NCBI GenBank assembly: GCA_949740535.1
Contig: CATJHO010000102.1
Span: 1 to 39,271 of the forward strand
Direction of reading: 5' to 3'
From: an uncultured Lachnospiraceae bacterium
GTDB lineage: Bacteria > Bacillota > Clostridia > Lachnospirales > Lachnospiraceae
Length of the DNA stretch: 39,271 nucleotides
Below the pieces are notes generated by a model that saw only the letters and a program-made list of their open reading frames with translations, was not told the DNA's origin and searched no databases. This document shows positions 1 through 11,174 of this stretch, in pieces. The translations under genes were made by a program, and so were the position numbers. Each line of letters begins with the position of its first letter. Position 1 is the first letter of the stretch.

Positions 1-1
1 A

Positions 2-106
2 ACACTGCATCCCGTAGAATATGAAGAGACAGAGAGCTATCAGGTGACGGAGATGTTTTTGAATCACAGGGAATATTTATTGGAACGGCTGCTGGATGAA
101 TCATAA
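2..106 (+). CDS. 3' end of an unidentified protein (5' end outside window)
   Basis: The frame starting at base 2 is open to a TAA at 104-106 and encodes about 34 residues rich in Glu, Leu and Tyr, ending LLERLLDES. The amphipathic, charged composition and continuous reading suggest the real C-terminus of an upstream gene. The fragment is too short to assign to a family. Roughly 300 bp separate it from the next gene, so it is probably not part of the cassette downstream. Confidence 0.5.
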   Translation, partial: TLHPVEYEETESYQVTEMFLNHREYLLERLLDES

Positions 107-409
107 AAATAAAAACGGATCACCTGAAAAGTGCTCTGCATGAATATCAGAGAATATTGAAAATTCAAGCGAATGAGTTGACACTTTGGGAGCTGCTGCG
201 AAACTGAAACAGCAGTATCTTGTCAGTGCTCAGAAGAATTTAAGGGCACATGTTCCTGCAGCCGTAAATTCTTCTATAAATAAAGGTAAACTGACAAGAT
301 GCTGTCAAATGGTAATCGTCCGGTTAAGAAATGTAAAGTGTTAATAAGAAATACGTCTGGCTTTACCCTTTAGCGCTTTCGCGCAGTGATTTAAAATAGG
401 AGGAAAAAA
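107..409. other. Intergenic region before the MoxR cassette
   Basis: No convincing gene is seen. A TTGACA at 178-183 has no matching -10 box at the right distance. The main content is a nested inverted repeat at 209-305, listed separately. A strong ribosome binding site, TAGGAGG, lies at 397-403, seven bases before the MoxR start. I could not identify a clear promoter for the cassette. Confidence 0.5.
209..305. repeat. Nested inverted repeat / compound hairpin
   Basis: The outer arms ATCTTGTCAG (217-226) and CTGACAAGAT (291-300) pair perfectly. The stem continues with ACAGC (209-213) against GCTGT (301-305) after a 3-base bulge. Inside it, AGAAGAATTTA (232-242) pairs perfectly with TAAATTCTTCT (265-275). 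No U-tract follows, so it is not a standard terminator. It could be a structured leader RNA, a small palindromic repeat element or a protein-binding site; the sequence alone does not decide. Confidence 0.6.
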
Positions 410-1525
410 ATGGAACCAAACAAAGCAATCAAACCGCCAGTAGAAATACGCTATAAAGAGGAGCTGGAAGCCCTGTCGGCCCTGGATACGGGCCGGCGTC
501 CCCTGAACTGGAAGCTGTCTCCGAAAGCTGTGCGGACCTTTATTCTGGGAAGCCGTGAACCCATCCGTTACAATGGAAAAGACATTCATATCCGCAAAAA
601 GTATCTGGGAAATGACGCCCTGGTAGAGCGGTGTATCATTACCCTCGCAGGAAACCGGGGCCTGATGCTGGTGGGAGAACCGGGTACAGCCAAGACGATG
701 CTTTCCGAGCTTCTGTCGGCGGCCATCAGCGGCAGCAGCACCAATACCATCCAGGGTACAGCGGGAACTACGGAGGATATGATCAAATACAGCTGGAATT
801 ACGCCCTGCTTCTGGCCAAAGGTCCCATTCGCGAGGCACTGGTCCCTTCTCCGCTCTATGTGGGCATGGAGCAGGGAATTCTGACCCGCTTTGAGGAGAT
901 CACCCGTACACCGGCGGAGATACAGGACAGTCTGATCAGCGTTCTGAGCGACAAGGTACTGAATGTGCCGGAGCTGGGAGAGGAGGGACTGCTTTTTGCC
1001 AAGGCAGGCTTCAATGTGATCGGCACGGCTAATACCAGGGACAAGGGCGTCAATGAGATGAGCAGTGCCTTAAAGCGGCGGTTTAACTTTGAGACCGTTC
1101 TGCCCATCCGGGATGCGGCTCTGGAAAAGCAGATTATTCTGAATGAAGTGGCAGATCTGGCGAAGGAAAACCAGATTGAAATGGAGCCGGACGAGGATGT
1201 GGCCGGGCTTCTGGCTTCCACCTATCATGAGCTCAGGGAGGGTGTTTCCTCTCTGGGACACCGGATTGACCGGCCCTCAGCGGTGATGAGCACAGCGGAG
1301 GCGGTATCTGTTTATTATCAGACCATGATGACGGCTTATTATTATGGAGACTCCCGGATGGATATGGGATGTCTGGTACAGAACCTGGTGGGAGCTGTGC
1401 AGAAGGAGAATAAGGAAGATCTGGAAAAACTGAAAAGCTATTTTCAGACCGTGATTCGCGATAAGGGAGGAAAAGAGGGCGGCTTATGGAGCAGTTATTA
1501 CGAAGCCAGAAAATATCTGCGGTAG
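410..1525 (+). CDS. MoxR-family AAA+ ATPase (YehL-like)
   Basis: 371 residues. The Walker A motif GEPGTAKT is at about 89-96, a Walker B-like FEEITR at about 161-166, and a sensor segment GTANTRD followed by an arginine-rich SSALKRRF near 205-227. This is the MoxR branch of AAA+ proteins, which act as ATP-driven remodelling chaperones and usually work with a VWA-domain partner; such a partner is encoded two genes downstream. The ATG at 410 follows TAGGAGG. Its end overlaps the next gene by 40 bp, indicating translational coupling. Gene content around it matches the E. coli yeh locus, where YehL is the ATPase. The family is clear; the substrate is unknown. Confidence 0.93.
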   Translation: MEPNKAIKPPVEIRYKEELEALSALDTGRRPLNWKLSPKAVRTFILGSREPIRYNGKDIHIRKKYLGNDALVERCIITLAGNRGLMLVGEPGTAKTMLSELLSAAISGSSTNTIQGTAGTTEDMIKYSWNYALLLAKGPIREALVPSPLYVGMEQGILTRFEEITRTPAEIQDSLISVLSDKVLNVPELGEEGLLFAKAGFNVIGTANTRDKGVNEMSSALKRRFNFETVLPIRDAALEKQIILNEVADLAKENQIEMEPDEDVAGLLASTYHELREGVSSLGHRIDRPSAVMSTAEAVSVYYQTMMTAYYYGDSRMDMGCLVQNLVGAVQKENKEDLEKLKSYFQTVIRDKGGKEGGLWSSYYEARKYLR

Positions 1526-4035
1526 AGGAAGAAACAGACTTTGTCATACCGCCGGAGCTTTTGTACCATACAGACTGCAGGCTCCTTTATTTTCCCGTCC
1601 GTCATCATAGTCCGGCCTGTTCCTTTCATCTGAAGCGGGCAGTGGCAGAATATGAGCCGGATCTGATACTCATAGAAGGGCCGGAAAATGCAGGCTCCCA
1701 GATCCCGGTTCTGCTTCACCAGGATACGAAGCCGCCTTTGGCGCTGTATTATGCGTATCGGGACCGGGCAGGGCTGGTTACGGATAAGAAGGGGGACTAC
1801 AAATGCTACTATCCCTTTTTGGACTGCTCTCCGGAACTGACGGCCTTGCGGGAGGCCGGGACACGGGAAATTCCGGCCCGGTTTATAGACTTATCCTATG
1901 GGGAGATTCTCATTGGGACTGCGGGCGGAAAGGGGGTCCGCAGAGAAGGAGAAAAGCAGACATACAATGACGACTATCTTCTGAGCCGGAGCCGCTATCT
2001 GACCATGCTCTGTGAGAAAACGGGACTGCGGGATTTTGAGGAGCTCTGGGAGAAGTATTTTGAAATTCAGGGGCTGACAGAGCCTACAGAAGCCTTTGTG
2101 CGCCATATGATGACCTACTGTATTTTATCCCGGATGCATACGCCGAAGGAAGAACTGGCGGAGGACGGCACCATACTGAGAGAGCGGTATATGGCGGAAC
2201 AGATTGCCTGCGCGTCCAGGGAATACCAGAGAATTCTGGTGGTTACAGGCGGATTTCACAGCTACGGCCTCTGGGAACTGCTGTCACAGGAGGAAAACGG
2301 GACATTTGCCTACACGGGAGAGCCGGTGAAACTGCATAGGGAGACAGAAAGGCAGCAGGAGGTGTACCCCATGGCTTACTCCATGGAGGCGGCCGATGCC
2401 CTCAACGGCTATGCCAGCGGTATGCAGTCTCCGGGGTTCTATCATCGGGTCTGGAGAAATATAGAAAATGGAAACCGCACAAAAAGCAGCGGATGGGAAG
2501 AGGAGGGCCTGGCTGCCGGCACAGGAGAAGACCAGGCGGAAAAAAGGAAGCAGACCGGGGCCTATGAGGAGGCAGTTCTGCACTTTCTGGCGGAGACAGG
2601 GCGGCAGGCCCGGAGAAAAGAGGAGAGCGTATCTTCCTACGATGAGATCTGTGCCTTTTCCATGGCCCAGGGACTTGCAGCTCTGCGGGGAAAGCAGGAG
2701 CCGGGGATTTATGAGCTGCGGGACTGCGCCTGCTCTGCCTTTGTAAAAGGGGAACTGAATCTGTCTACGGACGGTGCTCTGCGGATTCTAAAGAGTCTTA
2801 CAACAGGTTCCCAGGTGGGCCGTCTGTGTAAAGAGGCTGCACGGCCGCCCCTTTTGACAGATTTTGAGGAGCAGTGCGGGAGATTTGGCTTAAAAATTCA
2901 TTCTACGGTGGAGCAGACAGTGACGCTGGAAATCTTTAAAAAAGAAAAGCATCTGCAGCTGGGCCGTTTCTTCTACCGGACAGAATTTCTGGACTGCAGC
3001 TTTGCCAGGCGGAAGAAGGGAGCAGATCTGGTGAACCGCAAAGATCAGAACCGGGTCCGGGAGATTTGGAATTATAAATGGTCTGAGCAGGTGATCGCAG
3101 CCCTGATTGACGCTTCCATTTCCGGCGGAACGGTGGAGGAAGCTGCCCGCTGTCTTCTGGAGAGCCGTTTTCAGGAGAGCAGCGGCTGCAGAGAGGCGGC
3201 AAAGCTTCTGGTGCAGGGGTTTTTGATGGGACTTTCCCAGAAGCAGGAGCAGCTGCGGGTTCATCTGGCAGAGGTGCTGGCAATAGACGGGGATTTCTTT
3301 TCACTGACAGAAGGATTTTCCCAGCTTCTGATGCTGATGGAACTGCAGGATCTCTACCGGGTCCGCGATGAGCTGGATTTGGAACGGATGACGGATATCT
3401 GTTTTCAGAAAATCATTCAGCTTCTGCCTTCCATGGGACAGGTGGGAGAGGAACAGCAGCAGAAGTGCATGGAGAGTCTGCGCCTTCTCTATGAGGCAGC
3501 AGGCAGGAGAAATGAAGGGGAACGAAAGCCTGTACTGATGGAGGCTTTGAAAAGCCTGCTGGAACGGGGAAAGGTACAGCCAGGGGTAGAGGGTACAGTT
3601 CTGGGCCTTCTCTATGGCTATGAAGGAAGCTATGGAGAGGTGATTACCCGCACAGTCCGGGGATATATACAGGGAAGCGGGGAGATTCTGTCCAGAAGTG
3701 CGGCATTTCTTCGGGGCCTGTTCTTTTCTGCCAGAGATTTTGTCTTTGTAAGCAAAGAGTTTCTGGCCTTGATTGATGAACTGCTGGGGCGGCTTTCCGG
3801 GGAGGAATTTCTCAAACTTCTGCCGGAGCTGCGCATGGCCTTCGGATACTTTACACCGCTTGAAACCGATCGCATTGCCGGGCGGGCAGCTGCCCTTCAT
3901 GGAAGAAAAAAGAAGGAACTGCTGTCCGGACGGATGGTAAGTCTGGCAGAGTATGCTTATGGAGAGGAGCTGGACGCTTATGCGGCAGGAGAGCTGGAAA
4001 ACGGAATGAACCGGGTGGAAATGCAGCGTTTCTAG
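1486..4035 (+). CDS. DUF5682 family protein (YehM-like)
   Basis: 849 residues. Near residues 30-70 it has the RHHSPA segment and the LILIEGPE segment that I associate with DUF5682, and near 250 a hydrophobic strand ending VTGGFHSYGL. The conserved Glu after a hydrophobic strand and the later Gly-Gly-x-His resemble the layout of TraB/ChaN/EreA-type proteins, so a hydrolase-like N-terminal domain is possible (inference). The remaining ~550 residues are mostly predicted alpha-helical, leucine-rich and without a catalytic motif I recognise. The ATG at 1486 lies inside the end of the MoxR gene and has GGGAGG upstream. It has no signal peptide or membrane segment, so it is likely cytoplasmic and part of the MoxR/VWA complex. 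Confidence 0.85.
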   Translation: MEQLLRSQKISAVEEETDFVIPPELLYHTDCRLLYFPVRHHSPACSFHLKRAVAEYEPDLILIEGPENAGSQIPVLLHQDTKPPLALYYAYRDRAGLVTDKKGDYKCYYPFLDCSPELTALREAGTREIPARFIDLSYGEILIGTAGGKGVRREGEKQTYNDDYLLSRSRYLTMLCEKTGLRDFEELWEKYFEIQGLTEPTEAFVRHMMTYCILSRMHTPKEELAEDGTILRERYMAEQIACASREYQRILVVTGGFHSYGLWELLSQEENGTFAYTGEPVKLHRETERQQEVYPMAYSMEAADALNGYASGMQSPGFYHRVWRNIENGNRTKSSGWEEEGLAAGTGEDQAEKRKQTGAYEEAVLHFLAETGRQARRKEESVSSYDEICAFSMAQGLAALRGKQEPGIYELRDCACSAFVKGELNLSTDGALRILKSLTTGSQVGRLCKEAARPPLLTDFEEQCGRFGLKIHSTVEQTVTLEIFKKEKHLQLGRFFYRTEFLDCSFARRKKGADLVNRKDQNRVREIWNYKWSEQVIAALIDASISGGTVEEAARCLLESRFQESSGCREAAKLLVQGFLMGLSQKQEQLRVHLAEVLAIDGDFFSLTEGFSQLLMLMELQDLYRVRDELDLERMTDICFQKIIQLLPSMGQVGEEQQQKCMESLRLLYEAAGRRNEGERKPVLMEALKSLLERGKVQPGVEGTVLGLLYGYEGSYGEVITRTVRGYIQGSGEILSRSAAFLRGLFFSARDFVFVSKEFLALIDELLGRLSGEEFLKLLPELRMAFGYFTPLETDRIAGRAAALHGRKKKELLSGRMVSLAEYAYGEELDAYAAGELENGMNRVEMQRF

Positions 4036-4087
4036 ATCGTATTTGTCTGGAAACTGCAGGACAGGGATAAAGGGGAAATACATAGAT

Positions 4088-5230
4088 ATGCAGGCAATAG
4101 ATCATGAAAAACAACTAAACCGCTGGCGCCTGATTCTGGGAAGCCAGGCTAAGGATCAGATTTCATTTGGAGGCGGGGGATTCAATGCCCTGGAGAACGG
4201 CGTTTCCTGCGGGGATCTGGAGGAGGCCCTGGACTTTCTCTATTCGCGGGAATATGGGGAGGATGTACGCCGGGAGGGCGGTACAGGAGCCAGCAGGCTG
4301 ACTACGGCGGACTGGATCACAAAGATCCGGCGTCTCTTTCCCAGGGAAACGGTGGAAATACTGGAACGCCATGCCCTGGAGCGGTATGAGATGCAGGAGC
4401 TTCTCACCGACAAGGAGGTGCTGGAAAAACTGGAGCCCAATCCGGAGCTGCTCAAAACCATTTTACAGCTGAAGCATCTGATGAAGGGGGAAGTGCTGGA
4501 TACGGCCCGCCGGATTGTGAAAAAGACAGCAGAGGAGATTGCAGAGAAGCTGAATCAGGAGATCCGGCGTTCCCTTCTGGGGAGCCTGGACCGCAATACA
4601 CCCAGTCATGTGAAATCCATGCGGAATCTGGATATCCGCAAAACTATCCGCAGAAATCTCTCACACTACGATCCCTCGGAGCAGAGGCTTTTGCTGGAGC
4701 AGGTGTATTTCAGCAGCCGTACCCGCAGGTATAACCAGTGGCGGGTGGTGATCGCAGTGGACGAGAGCGGTTCCATGCTGGATTCTGTGATTCACAGCGC
4801 CATTATGGCAGGAATTTTTGCCAAGCTGCCCATGCTGGATACCCGGCTTGTGATTTTTGATACCCAGGTGGTGGATTTAAGCGCCCATCTGGATGATCCT
4901 GTGGAAACCCTGATGAGTATTCAGCTGGGCGGGGGGACTTATATTGCGGGAGCTCTCCAGTACTGTGCGGGGCTTATAGAGAATCCGGGCCGGACCATGG
5001 TGGTGCTGGTGTCGGATCTCTGTGAGGGCGGAAGCGCCGCCGGCCTTCTTGGCGTAAGCCGGGATATTATAGAGAGCGGTGCGAAGCTTATCTGCCTGAC
5101 GGCTCTTGACCGGGACGCCAATCCGGTTTATGACCGTCATATGGCTCAAAATCTGGCCAATCTGGGAGCGCATGTGGGAGCTATGACACCGGAGATGCTG
5201 GGAGATTTTATGGGGAAAATAATGCAGTAA
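4088..5230 (+). CDS. VWA-domain protein, MoxR partner (YehP-like)
   Basis: 380 residues from the ATG at 4088. A helical N-terminal half of about 215 residues precedes a von Willebrand A domain. The metal-ion-dependent adhesion site is complete: DESGS at about 225-229, the threonine in GGGTYIAG, and the aspartate in LVSDLCEGG. Proteins of this CoxE/YehP type are the usual partners of MoxR ATPases. An upstream in-frame TTG at 4043 extends the frame by 15 residues, but it sits only 7 bases after the preceding stop codon and lacks a ribosome binding site; ATG 4088 has AAAGGGG about 12 bases upstream and is preferred. It is cytoplasmic, with no signal or membrane segment. Confidence 0.9.
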   Translation: MQAIDHEKQLNRWRLILGSQAKDQISFGGGGFNALENGVSCGDLEEALDFLYSREYGEDVRREGGTGASRLTTADWITKIRRLFPRETVEILERHALERYEMQELLTDKEVLEKLEPNPELLKTILQLKHLMKGEVLDTARRIVKKTAEEIAEKLNQEIRRSLLGSLDRNTPSHVKSMRNLDIRKTIRRNLSHYDPSEQRLLLEQVYFSSRTRRYNQWRVVIAVDESGSMLDSVIHSAIMAGIFAKLPMLDTRLVIFDTQVVDLSAHLDDPVETLMSIQLGGGTYIAGALQYCAGLIENPGRTMVVLVSDLCEGGSAAGLLGVSRDIIESGAKLICLTALDRDANPVYDRHMAQNLANLGAHVGAMTPEMLGDFMGKIMQ

Positions 5231-5259
5231 GTATTTTGTGGATGGAAGCAGGGAAAAAG

Positions 5260-7473
5260 ATGGAAGAAGCATGGAAAAGTCTGCTTAAGCAGACGGATGA
5301 CGAATATCTTATAGGATTGTGCAATAAAGGCACCGTAAAGCGGGCCTATAAGGATCTGGAGCAGGAGACGCCTTCCCTGTGCTGGAAGGAGGACGGGGCA
5401 GAGATAACCTTAAAGGAAACCGTGTGCCGGATCCGGATGCCTCTTGGGGAGAGCGCCTGCAGCTGTCCTTCCCGGAGCATCTGCCGTCATGTGATCACAG
5501 CGGTTCTTTATCTTAAGAAAACACTGGAGGAGCCGGGAGCGGAAGCTGCAGCTGCGGCAGAGGCTGTTCTTCCAGATACAGGAGCGGTTATTAAGGCAGA
5601 TGAGGAAGAAAGAGTGCCGGGAGCATCCGAAGAGGCTGTCCGGGCAGAACAGGCAGAGGATCCGTACGGGCGGGATCTGAAACAGGCCCTGGAGCAGGAG
5701 CTTCTTGGCGTCTCTCTGGAGAAACTGAAACGGGCCTGTGGCAGCAGGCGGTATCAGGAGCTGCTGGCCTATCTCCAGGGGGGAGAACAGGCAGAGATTC
5801 AGGAAGGAACGGTAATTACGGTGAAGGTTCCCTGGGAGGAGCCGGTGGTGAAGCTGTTAAGTCCTCTTGCCTATTCCACCTGCACCTGCCACAGCAAGGA
5901 GCTCTGCCGCCACAAAGCGCAGGCAGTACTGCTTTTTCAACTGCATCGGAAGGCAGTGACGCCTGAACAGCTGTGCCGGCATTCAGAATGTGCGGCAGAG
6001 TGGGACAGGAAGGAGATTGAGCGGGCCGCAGTTTCCATTCAGGAGGGTATACGCCTGCAGATATTGACCGGGCTGTCCCGGCTGTCCCCGGAGGCGGCGG
6101 AAAGCATGGAGCGCCTGGCGGTGATCAGCCATGGAGCCGGTCTGGCTTCCTGTGAGACAGAACTTCGCAAAGCTGCTTCAGAGTACCGCCTGTACTCTGA
6201 GCGGTCGGCAGCATTTCGGACTCAGAACCTTCTGGAACAGCTGCTGGCCCTGTATCGGAAAGCAGAAGGGCTTAAGAGAGCGGAGAATCCGGAGCAGATA
6301 AGGGCTCTGGCAGGAAGCTTCCGGGATACTTACCGGCCCATATCCCGCCTTCATCTGATGGGGTTGGGAGGCCGGAGCTTTCACAGCAAAACCGGATATG
6401 AGGGAGAGATTTATTATTTTCTGGAGCCGGAGAAGGGAAGCTTTTATACCTGGACCGACGCCCGGCCTGTCTTTTATGAGGGGGTAAGAAGGAGACCGGC
6501 GGGAAGTGGGGAACAGGTCCAGGCTCCCTGGGGATTGAACTGCAGCCGGGAGCAGATGATGGAACTGGAATTTTATCTGGAACATGCCAAAGCAGCCGGG
6601 GGTGTAAGGCTGTCCGTGAGCCAGGAGACAAAAAGCGAGATTCTGGGACTTCGGGATTTTCGGACAGAAGAAGTCCGCAGAAATGTGTTCTGGAATTATG
6701 AGGAGCTTTTAAGATTCTGTTTTCAGGATCCAAAGGCAGAAGACGGAGGAGAGAGGGCGGCCCTGGTGGGAGCGGTAAGCTGCAGGGAAGCAGACTTTGA
6801 CACGGTGCAGCAGAGATTCTCCATGGAGCTCACCGATGTCAGCGGGCAGAAGCTCACAGTGGCTGTCACCTATACCAAAGAAGAAAAGCTGACGATTCAG
6901 GTGCTGGAACGCTTCAGTGAACGGCTTAAGAAGCAGGGAGATCGTCCCCTGGTGTTCTTCGGCCTTCCCTATCTGAAGGAAGGACGGCTGTGGCTGTATC
7001 CGGTGGAAATCTTTGAGGGCGAACGGTTCTTTTCGGAGCCAGGGGAGATGGAGCAGTATCTTCGGGACAAAGGGCTCTGGGAAGAAGGCAGGAAGGAAGA
7101 GGCAGACGGGCAGGGAGACAGACCGGACCGAGATGCCGGGCCGGATAAAGAGCTCCTGCAGGGAATGAAGCAGTTTCTGGAAGAGATTCAGGAGGCGCTG
7201 GGAGATTTGTTTCAGAGCGGTCTGAACTCGGTGCTGGAGGAGACTCTGGGGAATCTTGAGCGTCTGGCAGAAGAGAGCAGTTCCTTAGGGCTTCACAGAG
7301 CCGGATCGGATCTGGCGTTTCTTAAAAAGGCGCTGAGTGAAAAGCGCCACCAGATGGAGTTTGATCCGAAACCTGTACTGGAGGTCTGGGTGCGGCTTAC
7401 GGATTACGTGCGGATCTGCCTGGAGAAAGTATCACTGGATCAGGCGCTGCTGGACATGAACTGCATTTCGTAA
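5260..7473 (+). CDS. SWIM zinc-finger protein with two SWIM motifs (YehQ-like)
   Basis: About 737 residues. Two CxCx5CxH SWIM motifs are visible: CSCPSRSICRH near residue 66 and CTCHSKELCRH near residue 207. SWIM fingers generally bind nucleic acid or protein. The region between them is acidic and Ala/Glu-rich, like a linker; the C-terminal 500 residues are helical with a second acidic linker near residue 620. The frame opens earlier at TTG 5236 and ATG 5242, but only ATG 5260 has a plausible ribosome binding site (AGGG), so I chose it with moderate certainty. It follows the VWA gene by 29 bp, so it is probably in the same transcript, in the order expected for yeh-type loci. Confidence 0.88.
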   Translation: MEEAWKSLLKQTDDEYLIGLCNKGTVKRAYKDLEQETPSLCWKEDGAEITLKETVCRIRMPLGESACSCPSRSICRHVITAVLYLKKTLEEPGAEAAAAAEAVLPDTGAVIKADEEERVPGASEEAVRAEQAEDPYGRDLKQALEQELLGVSLEKLKRACGSRRYQELLAYLQGGEQAEIQEGTVITVKVPWEEPVVKLLSPLAYSTCTCHSKELCRHKAQAVLLFQLHRKAVTPEQLCRHSECAAEWDRKEIERAAVSIQEGIRLQILTGLSRLSPEAAESMERLAVISHGAGLASCETELRKAASEYRLYSERSAAFRTQNLLEQLLALYRKAEGLKRAENPEQIRALAGSFRDTYRPISRLHLMGLGGRSFHSKTGYEGEIYYFLEPEKGSFYTWTDARPVFYEGVRRRPAGSGEQVQAPWGLNCSREQMMELEFYLEHAKAAGGVRLSVSQETKSEILGLRDFRTEEVRRNVFWNYEELLRFCFQDPKAEDGGERAALVGAVSCREADFDTVQQRFSMELTDVSGQKLTVAVTYTKEEKLTIQVLERFSERLKKQGDRPLVFFGLPYLKEGRLWLYPVEIFEGERFFSEPGEMEQYLRDKGLWEEGRKEEADGQGDRPDRDAGPDKELLQGMKQFLEEIQEALGDLFQSGLNSVLEETLGNLERLAEESSSLGLHRAGSDLAFLKKALSEKRHQMEFDPKPVLEVWVRLTDYVRICLEKVSLDQALLDMNCIS

Positions 7474-7504
7474 CAATTCAGTGTCCCCTTCAGGGAAGAA
7501 AAAA

Positions 7505-7568
7505 CTTGTTTCTTTGTAAGCTTATAAGATATAAGCGTCGATTTACAGTTATTTGTACAGAATATGCA
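7505..7568 (+). promoter_or_regulatory. Possible weak promoter before the DUF4132 gene
   Basis: The 134 bp between the SWIM and DUF4132 genes is AT-rich, unlike the tight junctions upstream. TTTACA (7542-7547) and TATGCA (7563-7568) are only 15 bp apart, and a TTGTTT at about 7507 has a TATAAG-like box downstream. Neither pair is strong. This may allow separate expression of the large DUF4132 protein, but it is a weak call. Confidence 0.2.
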
Positions 7569-7607
7569 AAAGAATCTGGATCCATTTATTGAAAAGGAGA
7601 AGAACCT

Positions 7608-10600
7608 ATGAATTTAAGTGATGAAAGAAATTATCAGAAACTGATGGACACCCTGGATGCTCTCAGCCTGACAGAAAAGAACCGGAAGACAGCGGAAGCT
7701 TATCTGGATACTGGCAGTCCGGAACAGAAGGAACTGCTGGAGCAGGTGGAACAGCAGGATTTTTCAAACTTAAGAGATGAACAGCGTCAGAAAAGTATCA
7801 ATTATGTGGAACATCTGCGCAAGAGGAATAAAAAGGAAGAGCTGAAACGCTATGTACAATTTCAGGCGGCAGCAGGCGGTTCCACGGCTTACTATGTCTT
7901 TAACCGCTACGGCTGGAGTTTAAGCTCAGTGAAGGAATACTTAAATCCGGAGCAGACAATGGCAGTTCTGGCAGAGAGTCTGGTCTGGAACAGCTACAGC
8001 CTTAATTATCGGAATACAAAAGAAATTAAGGAGCAGGGAAGAAGAGATCCGGAAGTCTTAAGAAGAGCCATGGATCTGTGTTATCATTCCAGCGACAATG
8101 CGAAAGTTCTGCTGGCCGGTCTTTATTTGAACTGCAGGCGGGCAGAGGCCAGAAAGCCTGGTATTTTAAAAGGACTTTTTGCAAAAAACACTTCTTCAGA
8201 CAACGATGGAGTATCCCGGACCATAAAATTTCTGGAAGATAATATCATAGCCAGTATGCCGGAAATATTTTTGAAACACGATCTGGGAAAGAGCCAGATA
8301 GAGGAATTGCAGAATTATGTCCGCAGCCATCCCATCGATCAGCCATTTCCGCCGGCGGTTCAGAAACTTTTAAATAAACGGAGTTTTTCAGAATATATGG
8401 TAATGTTGTTGTCAGGAGCGGCATTTCTGGCCCTGGAGCACTCACCGGTCTTTTCTGCCTTTTTGCAGGTGGCAGGAAGTCTGTCTGCAGATATTACGCT
8501 GAAGGCATGCAGAGATCTTACCAGTCTTCCAGATGATCCGGACTCCTGGTTCCATAAACATCTGGAGCAGCTGGAAAGCCTGTTCCCGGTGAAGCCGGAG
8601 GAGTTTGTCCGCTGGTATACAGCCAATAATGAGGAGAAGGGACTCTGCCGCATGGCAGCGCGCTTTCCGGATGCAGTGCGGCACGTGGCAGACCACGTGA
8701 CCACGGATGAGTACCAGAGGCTGATGACCCAGACCCGGAACGGCAACCCGGCTCTGGCAAAAGAACTGGAAAAGGAAAATTCTGGAAAATACCAGGTAAA
8801 GCTGGCTGCCGAGCTGACAGCCGGAATGCAGAACGGGCAGACAGAGGCCAAGGATTATCTTTTGGGAGAGACGAAGATTGAGACCCTGTATCCCTTTGTA
8901 AACAACTGGCGGGGGATTAACAGTTATCATTACCAGCGTTTTCAGAAGCTTCAGAATCTGCGCAAAAACGGAAGCCGTTTATTCCGCAGAGGAGTGGTAC
9001 TGGAGGCCCTTCGGATGCAGGGAAGCTTCTTTACCGGCTATTATTTTCATTCTATCCGGGGCTCAAAGACCAACGAAAAACAGCTTGCAGAGGAGATGGG
9101 GCAGCTGATACAGCTTTTTGAAAAGGAGGCGCTTCCCATTCAGTATCAGGCGGATGCCATAGAAGGGATCTGTAATGCCTGCTATCAGGAAAGGGACAAA
9201 AATGCCGTGCTGGATACGGCGGCCAGAATATTGTCAGCCCAGTGGCGGGAGCACGCCCAGGAATTCCGGGATGCAGTGAAGAACAGCACTGCCATAGGCC
9301 GCTGTCTCTGTATCCGTGTGATGGATACCTTCTGGCAGGAGGAGATGGAAACGATTCTTTCCTCGGCCCTTGACAGTTCCAAGCAGGTCCGGGAACAGCT
9401 GGTAACTATCTGCACGGCACATAAAGAGTGGGAGCCAAAGATGCTGGCTATGGTTTCATCCAAAAAGTCCCAGGAGCGGGAGCTTGGCATCCGCGTGCTG
9501 AAGTTCTGGGATGTAAATGCTTATCGAGACACCTTTGCAAAGGCCCTGGAGACGGAGAAGAGCAAGAAGCTGAAAGAACTCCTTTCCGACTGTCTGGGCG
9601 TGAAGCAGGAGGCAGAAGAAGCAGCAGGAGGGAGTCCCAGGACTCCCAAAGAGCTGGCCAGAGAGGTCTTAAAAGGCGGAAAGAAACGGAAGACAGCATG
9701 GGCCTATGAAACGCCTTTCCCAGTGGTACATAATAAGGATGGAAGCGAGGCAGAAGAGGAATATCTGCAGGCAGTACTGACCGCCTACGCAGATCGGGGT
9801 GTACCGGGCATCAGTCCGGAAGGGGCAGAACTGGCCCAGGAACTGGATCCGGAAGAGCTTGGCGCCTATGTGGCAGCTCTCTTTGACAAATGGCTGGAAT
9901 CCGGGGCGGAGGCCAAGAAAAAATGGGTGCTCTACGCGGCATCTGTTCATGGGGGAAAAGAGATTGTGGACGCATTCCGGCATCAGATTCAGGAATGGCC
10001 CCAGCATGCCAGAGGAGCCATGGCGGCAGAGGCAGTGAAGGCTTTGGCGCTGAACGGAAGCTCTGAGGCTCTGCTGTATGTGGATCAGATTTCCAGAAAA
10101 TTCAAGTTCCGCCAGGTGAAGACAGCGGCAGGGGAGGCCTTGGAATATGCGGCTTGCGCGCTTGGGATCAGCCGGGCAGAGCTGGAGGACCGGATTGTGC
10201 CGAATCTGGGCTTTGACGATCAGCTGAAGCGCACCTTTGATTATGGATCCCGCAGGTTCCAGGTATATCTGACACCGGCTCTGGAGCTGGAGGTTTTTGA
10301 TGAGACGGAGAAAAAGCTTAAGAACCTTCCGGCTCCCGGAAAGCGGGATGAGGAGGAGAAGGCAGCCGCCGCCTATAAAGCCTTCAAGGATATGAAAAAG
10401 CAGCTCAAGACTGTAGTTTCCAATCAGAAAATGCGCCTGGAGCAGGCTCTGACAGCGGAACGGCTCTGGAGCGCTTCTGCCTGGGAGGAGCTCTTTGTGA
10501 AGAATCCGGTGATGCATCAGTTTGCCATCGGTCTTATCTGGGGCATTTATGAGGAGAAGGTTCTAAAGAATACCTTCCGCTATATGGAGGACGGCAGCTT

Positions 10601-11174
10601 CAACACAAAGGACGAAGAGGAGATGGAGCTTCCAGGAGACGCGCAGATTGGCCTGGTGCATCCCATTGAGCTTGAAAAAGAGGATCTTGCCGCCTGGAAG
10701 GAACAGCTTCAGGATTACGAGATTATCCAGCCTATTGAGCAGCTGGAGCGCCCGGTCTACCAGGTGGCCGAGGAGGAAAAAGGAACGAGGGAGCTGACCA
10801 GATTTGGCGGAAAGCTTTTGAACGGTCTGTCCCTCTCCGGTAAACTGCAGGGCATGGGCTGGTACCGGGGATCCGTGCAGGATGCAGGGGTTTACTATAC
10901 GTTTTACCGGGAAGATGGGGACATCGGCGTAGAGCTTGAATTCTCCGGAAGCTATGTGGGCGACGAGAATGACGAGGTCACGGTTTACGGCGCAGCCTTC
11001 TACCGGGCCGGAACGGTGAAGCGGGGAAGCTATGTGTATGATACCATCAAAAAAGAGAATGGGTACACACTGGATCAGGTAAGCCCCCGCTATTTCAGCG
11101 AGACAGTGCTGATGCTTACAAAGGCTGTGGCTTCCAGCCAGGAACAGCTGGCGTATCCGGCTTGTAAGAATTGA
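7608..11174 (+). CDS. DUF4132 domain protein (YehI/MolR-like), 1188 aa
   Basis: The largest protein in the window. The N-terminal ~850 residues are helical, with repeated leucine-rich alpha-hairpins reminiscent of HEAT/ARM scaffolds. The C-terminal third carries the segment I recognise as DUF4132, starting near residue 875 with RTFDYGSRRFQVYL and continuing through KDMKKQLK and ERLWSASAWEELF, then a beta-rich tail ending near WYRGSVQDAG. In E. coli the DUF4132 protein YehI is encoded beside the yehL-Q genes and has been called a molybdate metabolism regulator (MolR), a label with little mechanistic support. The ATG has AAAAGGAGA nine bases upstream. It has no signal peptide or membrane segment. 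Function unknown; probably a scaffold or effector of the cassette. Confidence 0.88.
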   Translation: MNLSDERNYQKLMDTLDALSLTEKNRKTAEAYLDTGSPEQKELLEQVEQQDFSNLRDEQRQKSINYVEHLRKRNKKEELKRYVQFQAAAGGSTAYYVFNRYGWSLSSVKEYLNPEQTMAVLAESLVWNSYSLNYRNTKEIKEQGRRDPEVLRRAMDLCYHSSDNAKVLLAGLYLNCRRAEARKPGILKGLFAKNTSSDNDGVSRTIKFLEDNIIASMPEIFLKHDLGKSQIEELQNYVRSHPIDQPFPPAVQKLLNKRSFSEYMVMLLSGAAFLALEHSPVFSAFLQVAGSLSADITLKACRDLTSLPDDPDSWFHKHLEQLESLFPVKPEEFVRWYTANNEEKGLCRMAARFPDAVRHVADHVTTDEYQRLMTQTRNGNPALAKELEKENSGKYQVKLAAELTAGMQNGQTEAKDYLLGETKIETLYPFVNNWRGINSYHYQRFQKLQNLRKNGSRLFRRGVVLEALRMQGSFFTGYYFHSIRGSKTNEKQLAEEMGQLIQLFEKEALPIQYQADAIEGICNACYQERDKNAVLDTAARILSAQWREHAQEFRDAVKNSTAIGRCLCIRVMDTFWQEEMETILSSALDSSKQVREQLVTICTAHKEWEPKMLAMVSSKKSQERELGIRVLKFWDVNAYRDTFAKALETEKSKKLKELLSDCLGVKQEAEEAAGGSPRTPKELAREVLKGGKKRKTAWAYETPFPVVHNKDGSEAEEEYLQAVLTAYADRGVPGISPEGAELAQELDPEELGAYVAALFDKWLESGAEAKKKWVLYAASVHGGKEIVDAFRHQIQEWPQHARGAMAAEAVKALALNGSSEALLYVDQISRKFKFRQVKTAAGEALEYAACALGISRAELEDRIVPNLGFDDQLKRTFDYGSRRFQVYLTPALELEVFDETEKKLKNLPAPGKRDEEEKAAAAYKAFKDMKKQLKTVVSNQKMRLEQALTAERLWSASAWEELFVKNPVMHQFAIGLIWGIYEEKVLKNTFRYMEDGSFNTKDEEEMELPGDAQIGLVHPIELEKEDLAAWKEQLQDYEIIQPIEQLERPVYQVAEEEKGTRELTRFGGKLLNGLSLSGKLQGMGWYRGSVQDAGVYYTFYREDGDIGVELEFSGSYVGDENDEVTVYGAAFYRAGTVKRGSYVYDTIKKENGYTLDQVSPRYFSETVLMLTKAVASSQEQLAYPACKN

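What the first reader, a model, noticed from the sequence alone, without database searches (positions are those of the whole stretch)
410..11174. Five-gene MoxR / DUF5682 / VWA / double-SWIM / DUF4132 cassette
About 10.8 kb encodes an AAA+ motor, its VWA partner with a complete metal site, a DUF5682 protein, a protein with two SWIM fingers and a 1188-residue DUF4132 protein, in tight order (40 bp overlap, then gaps of 52, 29 and 134 bp). The same five families make up the E. coli yehI/L/M/P/Q locus, so the set persists across phyla. Conserved co-occurrence without known function points to one machine. MoxR-VWA pairs are remodelling chaperones and have been proposed in biological conflict systems; here the substrate-recognition and effector parts may be DUF5682, SWIM and DUF4132. 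A defence, stress or cofactor-insertion role is inference.
Basis: partly seen in the sequence, partly recalled or inferred. Interest (0 to 1): 0.8.

Follow-up and report, generated by a model that had tools for sequence, protein, structure and literature searches.

The report
MoxR–VWA machine with TraB-like hydrolase
Five neighbouring genes that also exist in E. coli and other distant bacteria appear to build one ATP-driven machine whose unexplained subunit (DUF5682) carries a TraB/Tiki-type hydrolase-like domain; its cellular target is still unknown.

Summary
In detail: MoxR, DUF5682, VWA, double-SWIM and DUF4132 genes lie at 410-11174, each with a counterpart in E. coli yehI/L/M/P/Q. The cassette is a discrete unit: 63 of 80 kept loci have all five in this order, 12 of the 16 incomplete ones look cut by contig ends, and no flanking gene family occurs in more than 12 of 80. 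MoxR, DUF5682 and VWA lie together in 13 of 13 further loci. The other slots vary: DUF4132 (type A) is replaced by DUF5691 or an unnamed ~600-aa protein (type B), and MoxR, VWA and DUF5682 trees each separate A from B. New here: the DUF5682 N-terminus matches the TraB/Tiki superfamily with an intact 2His/2Glu set, and DUF5682 is fused to VWA in two loci. Best reading: an ATP-driven remodelling complex that feeds a hydrolase. Defence is not supported (near-core in E. coli, 5,162 of 5,426 genomes; PADLOC 0 of 5), though a few cassettes hold defence inserts. Molybdenum-cofactor maturation is disfavoured (MoaA in 1 of 15 DUF5682-bearing genomes of the genus). New variant of the MoxR–vWA kind.

The parts
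410..1525 (+). MoxR-family AAA+ ATPase (YehL-like). Walker A GEPGTAKT at 674-697; acidic FEE at 890-898.
   Evidence: Pfam AAA_5 6.6e-33; 47% to E. coli YehL; Walker A in 77 of 77 full-length relatives; 81 columns identical in at least 20 of 21 cross-phylum sequences
1486..4035 (+). DUF5682 protein (YehM-like), 849 aa, overlapping moxR by 40 nt
   Evidence: Pfam DUF5682 3.6e-103; YehM 24%, 8e-31; in-frame ATG exactly 40 nt inside moxR in 76 of 77 adjacent loci
1600..2271 (+). TraB/Tiki-superfamily core of DUF5682: H40 (1603), E64 (1675), R232/E233 (2179), H258 (2257)
   Evidence: hhalign to TraB: prob 96.0 (N-terminal half) and 94.7 (core); the residues identical in 31 of 31 sequences; weak Pfam matches to ChaN 23 of 52 and TraB 15 of 52
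4088..5230 (+). VWA_CoxE protein (YehP-like). MIDAS DESGS from 4760; D310.
   Evidence: Pfam VWA_CoxE 4e-46; 44% to YehP; D225, S227, S229 and D310 invariant in 19 of 19 cross-phylum sequences
5260..7473 (+). SWIM protein (YehQ-like) with two SWIM fingers, near 5449-5514 and 5881-5940
   Evidence: Pfam SWIM 1.9e-4 on the first finger; profile of five distant type A SWIM partners vs the Lachnospiraceae-type set prob 100.0; two motifs in 68 of 69 long relatives
7608..11174 (+). DUF4132 protein (YehI-like), 1188 aa; DUF4132 domain at 10311-10862
   Evidence: Pfam DUF4132 1.2e-56, domain place; YehI 34% over aa 748-1116, 1.9e-57
213..304 (.). Inverted-repeat element upstream of moxR (arms 213-227/290-304 and 232-245/262-275), not conserved with the cassette
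   Evidence: the repeat finder; similar stretch found in 1 of 14 genus upstream regions, L024

Best explanation
The cassette encodes one complex. SHOWN by sequence: MoxR, DUF5682 and VWA are a co-inherited core; the DUF5682 N-domain is related to TraB/Tiki proteins and keeps a 2His/2Glu set; DUF5682 and VWA can be one polypeptide. INFERRED: the MoxR ring with its MIDAS-bearing VWA cofactor remodels a client protein and presents it to the TraB/Tiki domain of DUF5682, which hydrolyses it; cleavage is more likely than haem or metal handling. INFERRED, weaker: SWIM and the large fifth protein (DUF4132, sometimes with a WGR domain; DUF5691 or another in type B) recruit or hold the client and may bind nucleic acid. 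The client and the triggering condition are unknown. I expect housekeeping or conditional quality control, or processing, rather than anti-phage immunity.
For: Unit: 63 of 80 loci five-in-order, all 400 gene calls on one strand, no flank family in more than 12 of 80 loci. Core in 13 of 13 loci, two with caveats: VWA fused in Streptomyces, broken in Methylosinus. Trees of MoxR, VWA and DUF5682 each need one change between types A and B (support 100/100, 100/100, 93/87). Fusions: DUF5682+VWA in Streptomyces L120 (aa 21-811 and 890-1250) and in a Lachnospiraceae MAG, L100 (aa 9-847 and 933-1300 of one ORF); SWIM+DUF5691 in L123 and, by one ORF matching both, L121. TraB link; column-permuted controls at most 2.8 (40 runs), while TraB vs GumN, one Pfam family, scores 75.0. 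The 2His/2Glu set is catalytic in a Tiki-family endopeptidase (PMC6254334, abstract and passages). MoxR-VWA pairs act in maturation of protein complexes (PMC3893208, passages).
Against: GumN-type profiles match DUF5682 poorly (0.0-11.1), and Lachnospiraceae-type rows alone reach TraB only at 70.3-74.3. No PDB chain matches the N-domain profile meaningfully (best E 0.53). ChaN, in the same superfamily, is named for haem uptake, so the fold does not prove hydrolysis. ssDNA-exonuc_C also matched 15 of 52 members weakly (best 5.4e-4). The Streptomyces DUF5682, a long branch of a type A locus, falls on the B side of the drawn tree. Direct contact between MoxR and DUF5682 is inferred from order and overlap alone.
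Confidence: 0.45

Rival explanations
1. Cofactor or metallo-enzyme maturase, like CoxD/CoxE or (recalled) chelatase AAA+/VWA pairs: MoxR-VWA opens an apo-enzyme and a ChaN-like DUF5682 domain handles haem or metal.
For: The VWA is of the CoxE family; CoxD/CoxE take part in maturing the CuSMoO2 site of CO dehydrogenase (PMC4240915, abstract and passages); ChaN is the most frequent weak second Pfam match, 23 of 52; DUF4132/MolR has old molybdate links (cited in PMC8533742 and PMC4245954, passages).
Against: For molybdenum: Mob_synth_C (MoaA) occurs in 1 of 16 genomes of the genus, and in 1 of the 15 that hold DUF5682. No gene family recurs in more than 12 of 80 flanks, and the top one looks like a transporter.
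Confidence: 0.2
2. Anti-phage or biological-conflict system of the MoxR-vWA ternary type.
For: MoxR-vWA ternary systems are proposed conflict systems (PMC7159879, passages and section 7). Inserts inside some cassettes carry defence genes: BREX in G005, AbiLi/AbiLii in L077, a PDC-S05 candidate in L036. An Iodobacter plasmid copy lies next to a type I RM set.
Against: PADLOC: 0 of 5 proteins. In E. coli 5,162 of 5,426 genomes hold at least 80% of yehL-Q. Viral contigs: 18 pattern matches, none a relative; phage records: 1 of 50,697, unverified. The candidate catalytic residues do not vary in 31 of 31. By eye most other inserts look ordinary.
Confidence: 0.12
3. DNA- or RNA-linked stress module: SWIM and WGR/DUF4132 bind nucleic acid and the MoxR-VWA-TraB part clears damaged or stalled complexes.
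For: WGR at the N-terminus of the cassette DUF4132 in Sinorhizobium and beside the E. coli locus (yehF); a DUF4132 protein, DRA0166, is discussed in a radiation-response study of Deinococcus (PMC8533742, passage).
Against: The window's DUF4132 has no WGR hit; the type B loci examined have DUF5691 or another protein in the slot; nucleic-acid binding untested.
Confidence: 0.18
4. Five genes kept together by operon habit only, with unrelated jobs.
For: DUF4132 also occurs alone: 4 of 7 DUF4132 genomes lack DUF5682.
Against: Matched trees, fusions, slot replacement and sharp cassette edges.
Confidence: 0.05

Closest known systems
E. coli yehI / yehL-M-P-Q locus
   Same: All five families; order L-M-P-Q as MoxR-DUF5682-VWA-SWIM; MoxR and VWA 44-47% identical
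   Different: DUF4132 (yehI) precedes yehL; moxR and DUF5682 genes do not overlap (10-nt gap); annotated as putative or uncharacterised
MoxR-vWA ternary conflict systems (VMAP, iSTAND, FtsH, beta-propeller types; PMC7159879, passages and section 7 seen)
   Same: MoxR chaperone plus vWA co-chaperone plus a type-specific third protein
   Different: Third protein here is a TraB/Tiki-type DUF5682; no second Pfam domain above cut-off on the window's VWA; near-core in E. coli; 'SWIM', 'WGR', 'DUF4132' and 'YehL' occur 0 times in that paper's main text
TraB/Tiki/ChaN superfamily
   Same: 2His/2Glu motif positions and hhalign match to TraB
   Different: Embedded in an 849-aa protein and linked to a MoxR-VWA pair; I saw no such setting in the listings and passages
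CoxD/CoxE and RavA/ViaA MoxR-VWA pairs
   Same: AAA+ plus VWA cofactor encoded together
   Different: Those have reported clients (CO dehydrogenase; Nuo), and no DUF5682 partner is named in the passages seen

Membership tests
YehL subfamily of MoxR AAA+ ATPases | MoxR AAA+ core with Walker A/B, close to E. coli YehL | tested here: met
   47% over 368 aa, 1.3e-107; Walker A 77 of 77, FEE/LEE 77 of 77
YehL subfamily of MoxR AAA+ ATPases | Partner gene with a MIDAS VWA | tested here: met
   VWA_CoxE 4e-46; DxSxS and D310 in 19 of 19
TraB/Tiki superfamily (DUF5682 N-domain) | Profile-level homology to a member family | tested here: met
   TraB prob 70.3-96.0 depending on rows used; 40 column-permuted controls at most 2.8, reversed TraB at most 0.2
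TraB/Tiki superfamily (DUF5682 N-domain) | 2His/2Glu set in the expected order | tested here: met
   H40, E64, E233, H258 in 31 of 31
TraB/Tiki superfamily (DUF5682 N-domain) | Match to GumN-type members (not defining for every member; told as a result against) | tested here: not met
   prob 0.0-11.1; TraB vs GumN itself 75.0
TraB/Tiki superfamily (DUF5682 N-domain) | Shared three-dimensional fold | not tested
   prediction switched off
MoxR-vWA ternary conflict systems | MoxR and vWA with a third conserved component | tested here: met
   core in 13 of 13 loci
MoxR-vWA ternary conflict systems | Third component VMAP, iSTAND, FtsH or beta-propeller | tested here: not met
   third component is DUF5682; none of these families above cut-off in the five proteins; bpMoxR hit below cut-off
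MoxR-vWA ternary conflict systems | Variable effector domains on the vWA protein | tested here: not met
   window VWA has no Pfam domain above cut-off beyond VWA; other loci not scanned for this
Anti-phage defence system | Match to known defence models | tested here: not met
   PADLOC 0 of 5
Anti-phage defence system | Patchy within a species | tested here: not met
   5,162 of 5,426 E. coli genomes
Anti-phage defence system | Enrichment in defence islands | tested here: inconclusive
   defence inserts in a few cassettes; no statistical test of flanks made
Molybdenum-cofactor maturation (CoxD/CoxE-like) | Host makes molybdenum cofactor | tested here: not met
   MoaA C-domain in 1 of 16 genus genomes, not in the window's own (84% complete) assembly

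The most novel reading that the evidence does not exclude
A previously undescribed, phylum-crossing ATP-dependent protease (or ester hydrolase) in which a MoxR-VWA motor drives a TraB/Tiki-type active site, with a swappable large recognition subunit; E. coli YehL-YehM-YehP-YehQ would be its laboratory-tractable form.
Probability: 0.35. Interest if true: 0.82.

Novelty: new variant of a known kind. Interest (0 to 1): 0.62.

Why it matters
These genes sit in almost every complete E. coli genome, yet the annotation and papers I saw give them no tested function. Naming the DUF5682 N-domain as TraB/Tiki-like, with four candidate catalytic residues, turns a group of uncharacterised genes into one testable enzyme complex. 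It also adds a possible kind of energy-coupled hydrolase in which MoxR–VWA would be the motor.

Tried and rejected
Structure prediction of the DUF5682 N-domain and DUF4132 C-domain: alignments A3 and A4 were made, but the machine was busy and then switched off. PDB sequence searches gave nothing useful: DUF5682 N-domain and DUF4132 C-domain profiles at E up to 1, SWIM up to 1, VWA up to 0.1, MoxR only up to 1e-5. Mobile-element view: viral contigs none, phage records one unverified contig whose MoxR, VWA and DUF5682 fall among type B, plasmids 31 of 72,556 records, several of them chromosome-sized. Homology among the slot-five proteins: DUF4132, DUF5691 and the ~600-aa protein show none (prob at most 1.0). 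I do not claim HEAT repeats for them; that was not tested. Type A and type B SWIM partners match each other only weakly (prob 26.3-48.8). Conserved upstream RNA or hairpin: no Rfam hit; the hairpin is shared with 1 of 14 genus members. The paper search for single yeh names was swamped by unrelated uses (653 papers, 40 listed). Mistakes mended: the VWA tree held one row that I had cut out of frame (Methylobacterium), redone; the SWIM profile held an out-of-frame Nonomuraea row, redone without it; a script count of 77 of 78 overlaps included one locus with an insert, and one search corrects it to 76 of 77; naming each ORF by its best family hid a VWA fused to DUF5682 in L100, found. The MoxR/SWIM/TraB literature search returned one CRISPR paper whose SWIM mention is a figure legend and not this cassette.
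Full report
WHAT IS THERE. The contig starts at window base 1, so the upstream side is cut. DUF4132 has one match in the window's own assembly. Each protein has an E. coli counterpart. MoxR and VWA are close (47% and 44%). DUF5682 is distant but aligns nearly full-length (24%). DUF4132 matches over 375 residues near its C-terminus. SWIM matches only weakly pairwise (3e-6), though a profile of five distant type A SWIM partners, YehQ among them, matches the Lachnospiraceae-type set with probability 100.0.

IT IS A UNIT. The listed titles are mostly Lachnospiraceae and other Clostridia, so these loci are not independent of each other. All five genes stand in the window's order in 63 of 80; one more has DUF4132 first. 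Of the 16 incomplete loci I judge 12 to be cut by contig ends; four are not (L038, L055, L081, L084). DUF4132 relatives exist elsewhere in the genomes of those four (5 of 5 handles, G005 and G522 giving the same places). All 400 cassette gene calls lie on the strand of DUF5682, and median spacings are -40, -4, 21 and 29 nt. Flanking ORFs of 80 aa or more within 6 kb were clustered: no family occurs in more than 12 of 80 loci, and that one looks like a generic transporter; flanks cut by contig ends lower such counts. So the conserved block ends sharply at the five genes. An in-frame ATG of DUF5682 lies exactly 40 nt inside moxR in 76 of 77 adjacent loci, which suggests translational coupling (inference).

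CO-OCCURRENCE. In 41 genomes around the window's own, DUF5682 is in 15 of 16 of the genus and 0 of 25 outside it. In 196 genomes of the class it is in 3, own included. In 299 genomes of the phylum, drawn with the same settings, DUF5682 passes its cut-off in 5 (two further short matches fell below it) and DUF4132 in 7, with 3 in common; chance gives p = 7.8e-5, or 0.002 without the window's own genome. Where both occur outside the genus (G294, G330) they lie in one five-gene block, ordered MoxR-DUF5682-VWA-DUF4132-SWIM. Against exclusivity: 4 of the 7 DUF4132 genomes have no DUF5682, and G294 and G330 each have a second DUF4132 gene with no cassette gene found in the stretch fetched around it. 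DUF5691 passes its cut-off in 0 of 299.

ACROSS PHYLA: A CONSTANT CORE AND A CHANGING SLOT. I fetched 13 of the 32 plasmid and phage records that matched E. coli YehM, leaving out eight E. coli records and further rhizobial, Agrobacterium/Allorhizobium, Proteus and Methylosinus ones. MoxR, DUF5682 and VWA lie together in all 13: in Sinorhizobium DUF4132 stands between DUF5682 and VWA, in Hymenobacter and Deinococcus a small ORF stands between MoxR and DUF5682, in Streptomyces DUF5682 and VWA are one polypeptide, and in Methylosinus VWA is in three pieces. With the window's group this spans six phyla (Pseudomonadota, Actinomycetota, Bacteroidota, Deinococcota, Fusobacteriota, and Bacillota by recall for Lachnospiraceae). 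Type A carries DUF4132 (Iodobacter, Nonomuraea, Sinorhizobium, Proteus; Streptomyces by the record's own annotation; also E. coli and the window). Type B carries DUF5691 with SWIM in front (Nocardia, Methylobacterium, Hymenobacter, Deinococcus, Rhizobium, Methylosinus), or an unnamed ~600-aa protein in the same place (Fusobacterium, G181, G107, G430). The slot-five proteins are not demonstrably related (prob at most 1.0). Trees of MoxR (21 rows), VWA (19 rows, redone) and DUF5682 N-domain (31 rows) each separate A from B with a single change, although the long-branch Streptomyces DUF5682 joins the B side of the drawn tree. Host taxonomy is not followed: Clostridia appear in both types, which points to transfer of whole cassettes (inference).

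FUSIONS. Streptomyces L120: DUF5682 at aa 21-811 and VWA at 890-1250 of one ORF. Lachnospiraceae MAG L100: DUF5682 at aa 9-847 and VWA at 933-1300 of one 1300-aa ORF, the only ORF among the 80 loci to match two cassette families. Hymenobacter: SWIM with DUF5691 (aa 499-1000). Nocardia L121: one ORF matches both the SWIM and DUF5691 references. These support physical contact between subunits; a lost stop codon or an assembly error in any one of them was not excluded.

WHAT DUF5682 IS. Across 31 sequences from six phyla (12 from the window's group, one from the unverified phage contig), R39, H40, P43, E64, R232, E233, M236, G255 and H258 are identical in all. The pattern, a His strand, then a Glu strand, then R-E-x2-M, then G-x2-H, is that of the TraB/Tiki superfamily (recognised from recall, then tested). 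Profile comparison with ten TraB proteins from the same phylum gave probability 96.0, E 2.2e-9. The core alone gave 94.7, other-lineage rows 95.3 and the window's group alone 70.3; with TraB cut to its first part 84.2, 83.8 and 74.3. Controls: 40 column-permuted TraB profiles at most 2.8, reversed and unrelated families at most 0.2. As a yardstick, TraB against GumN, which share one Pfam family, gave 75.0. Against this: GumN vs DUF5682 gave 0.0-11.1. A relaxed Pfam scan of 52 N-domains gave ChaN ('Tiki superfamily') in 23 and TraB in 15, but also ssDNA-exonuc_C in 15. A crystal study of a Tiki-family endopeptidase reports 2His/2Glu as catalytic and shared with other family enzymes (PMC6254334; abstract and passages). 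No structure could be made here.

OTHER ACTIVE SITES. Walker A is present in 77 of 77 MoxR proteins of the 80 loci; VWA shows DESGS in 74 of 75 there, with D225/S227/S229/D310 in 19 of 19 across phyla. Motor and MIDAS therefore look functional.

FUNCTION. MoxR–VWA pairs are reported to help maturation of dedicated complexes (PMC3893208, passages). With a TraB/Tiki domain as the constant third member, the simplest mechanism is ATP-driven presentation of a client to a hydrolase. Molybdenum: Mob_synth_C is found in 1 of 16 genus genomes, namely 1 of the 15 with DUF5682. A CoxD/CoxE-like Mo role is therefore unlikely here, despite the MolR tradition (cited second-hand). Defence: PADLOC 0 of 5; 5,162 of 5,426 complete E. 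coli genomes hold at least 80% of yehL-Q and 5,301 hold some; viral contigs 0 confirmed. For the other side: G005 has an ~18-kb insert between DUF5682 and VWA that contains BrxA, BrxB, BrxC, PglX, PglZ and part of a BrxL, while VWA, SWIM and DUF4132 ORFs remain open behind it, with one further ORF before DUF4132; L077 has AbiLi/AbiLii-like genes in its cassette, and L036 a PDC-S05 candidate. Most other inserts look ordinary by eye. I did not test defence enrichment of the flanks statistically.

KNOWN OR NEW. The YehL subfamily is named in print (PMC3893208, passage). The MoxR–vWA ternary systems paper lists VMAP, iSTAND, FtsH and beta-propeller types (PMC7159879, section 7) and its main text never mentions SWIM, WGR, DUF4132 or YehL. 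A 2021 follow-up mentions no SWIM, EreA, TraB or yeh gene (PMC8195603, passages). 'DUF5682' occurs in 0 papers of the library. Searches with at least two of DUF5682/DUF4132/MoxR/SWIM, at least two of the five yeh names, of YehL/MoxR/YehP, and four of MoxR/SWIM/TraB/von Willebrand/gene neighborhood showed, in their listings, no paper that I recognise as describing this set as one system. Subscription journals are mostly not held, so prior description outside the library cannot be excluded; in particular, a Pfam clan assignment or older comparative-genomics papers may already note parts of this. I file it as a new variant of the MoxR–vWA kind, not as a member of the described conflict systems.

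Noticed in passing
L165 3807-17776 (G005 contig C66): A near-complete BREX set (BrxA, BrxB, BrxC, PglX, PglZ; BrxL matched in part) sits inside the cassette between DUF5682 and VWA, and the downstream cassette ORFs remain open.
   Followed up: yes
L100 1185-5087: DUF5682 and VWA form one 1300-aa ORF in a Lachnospiraceae MAG, a second DUF5682-VWA fusion besides Streptomyces.
   Followed up: partly
18 loci of L036-L115, e.g. L090 13738-15977: The SWIM protein is split into a main ORF and a small following ORF of 104-235 aa; in L108 other ORFs lie between the two.
   Followed up: partly
L054, L089, L091, L092, L101, L109, L113: Tandem second DUF4132 gene after the first, reminiscent of E. coli yehH (pseudogene) and yehI.
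   Followed up: no
L132 1630-3339: In G372 a protein with TPR-like sequence (by eye) lies between DUF5682 and VWA; the DUF5682 match is listed with one TAG stop inside.
   Followed up: no
L128 (MT835988.1, unverified phage contig): Carries MoxR, DUF5682 and VWA of type B; probably bacterial DNA in a phage record.
   Followed up: partly
window 1-105 and upstream of moxR in L020, L022, L025, L026: The tail of an upstream gene looks shared with other genus members; in the window it is cut by the contig start.
   Followed up: no
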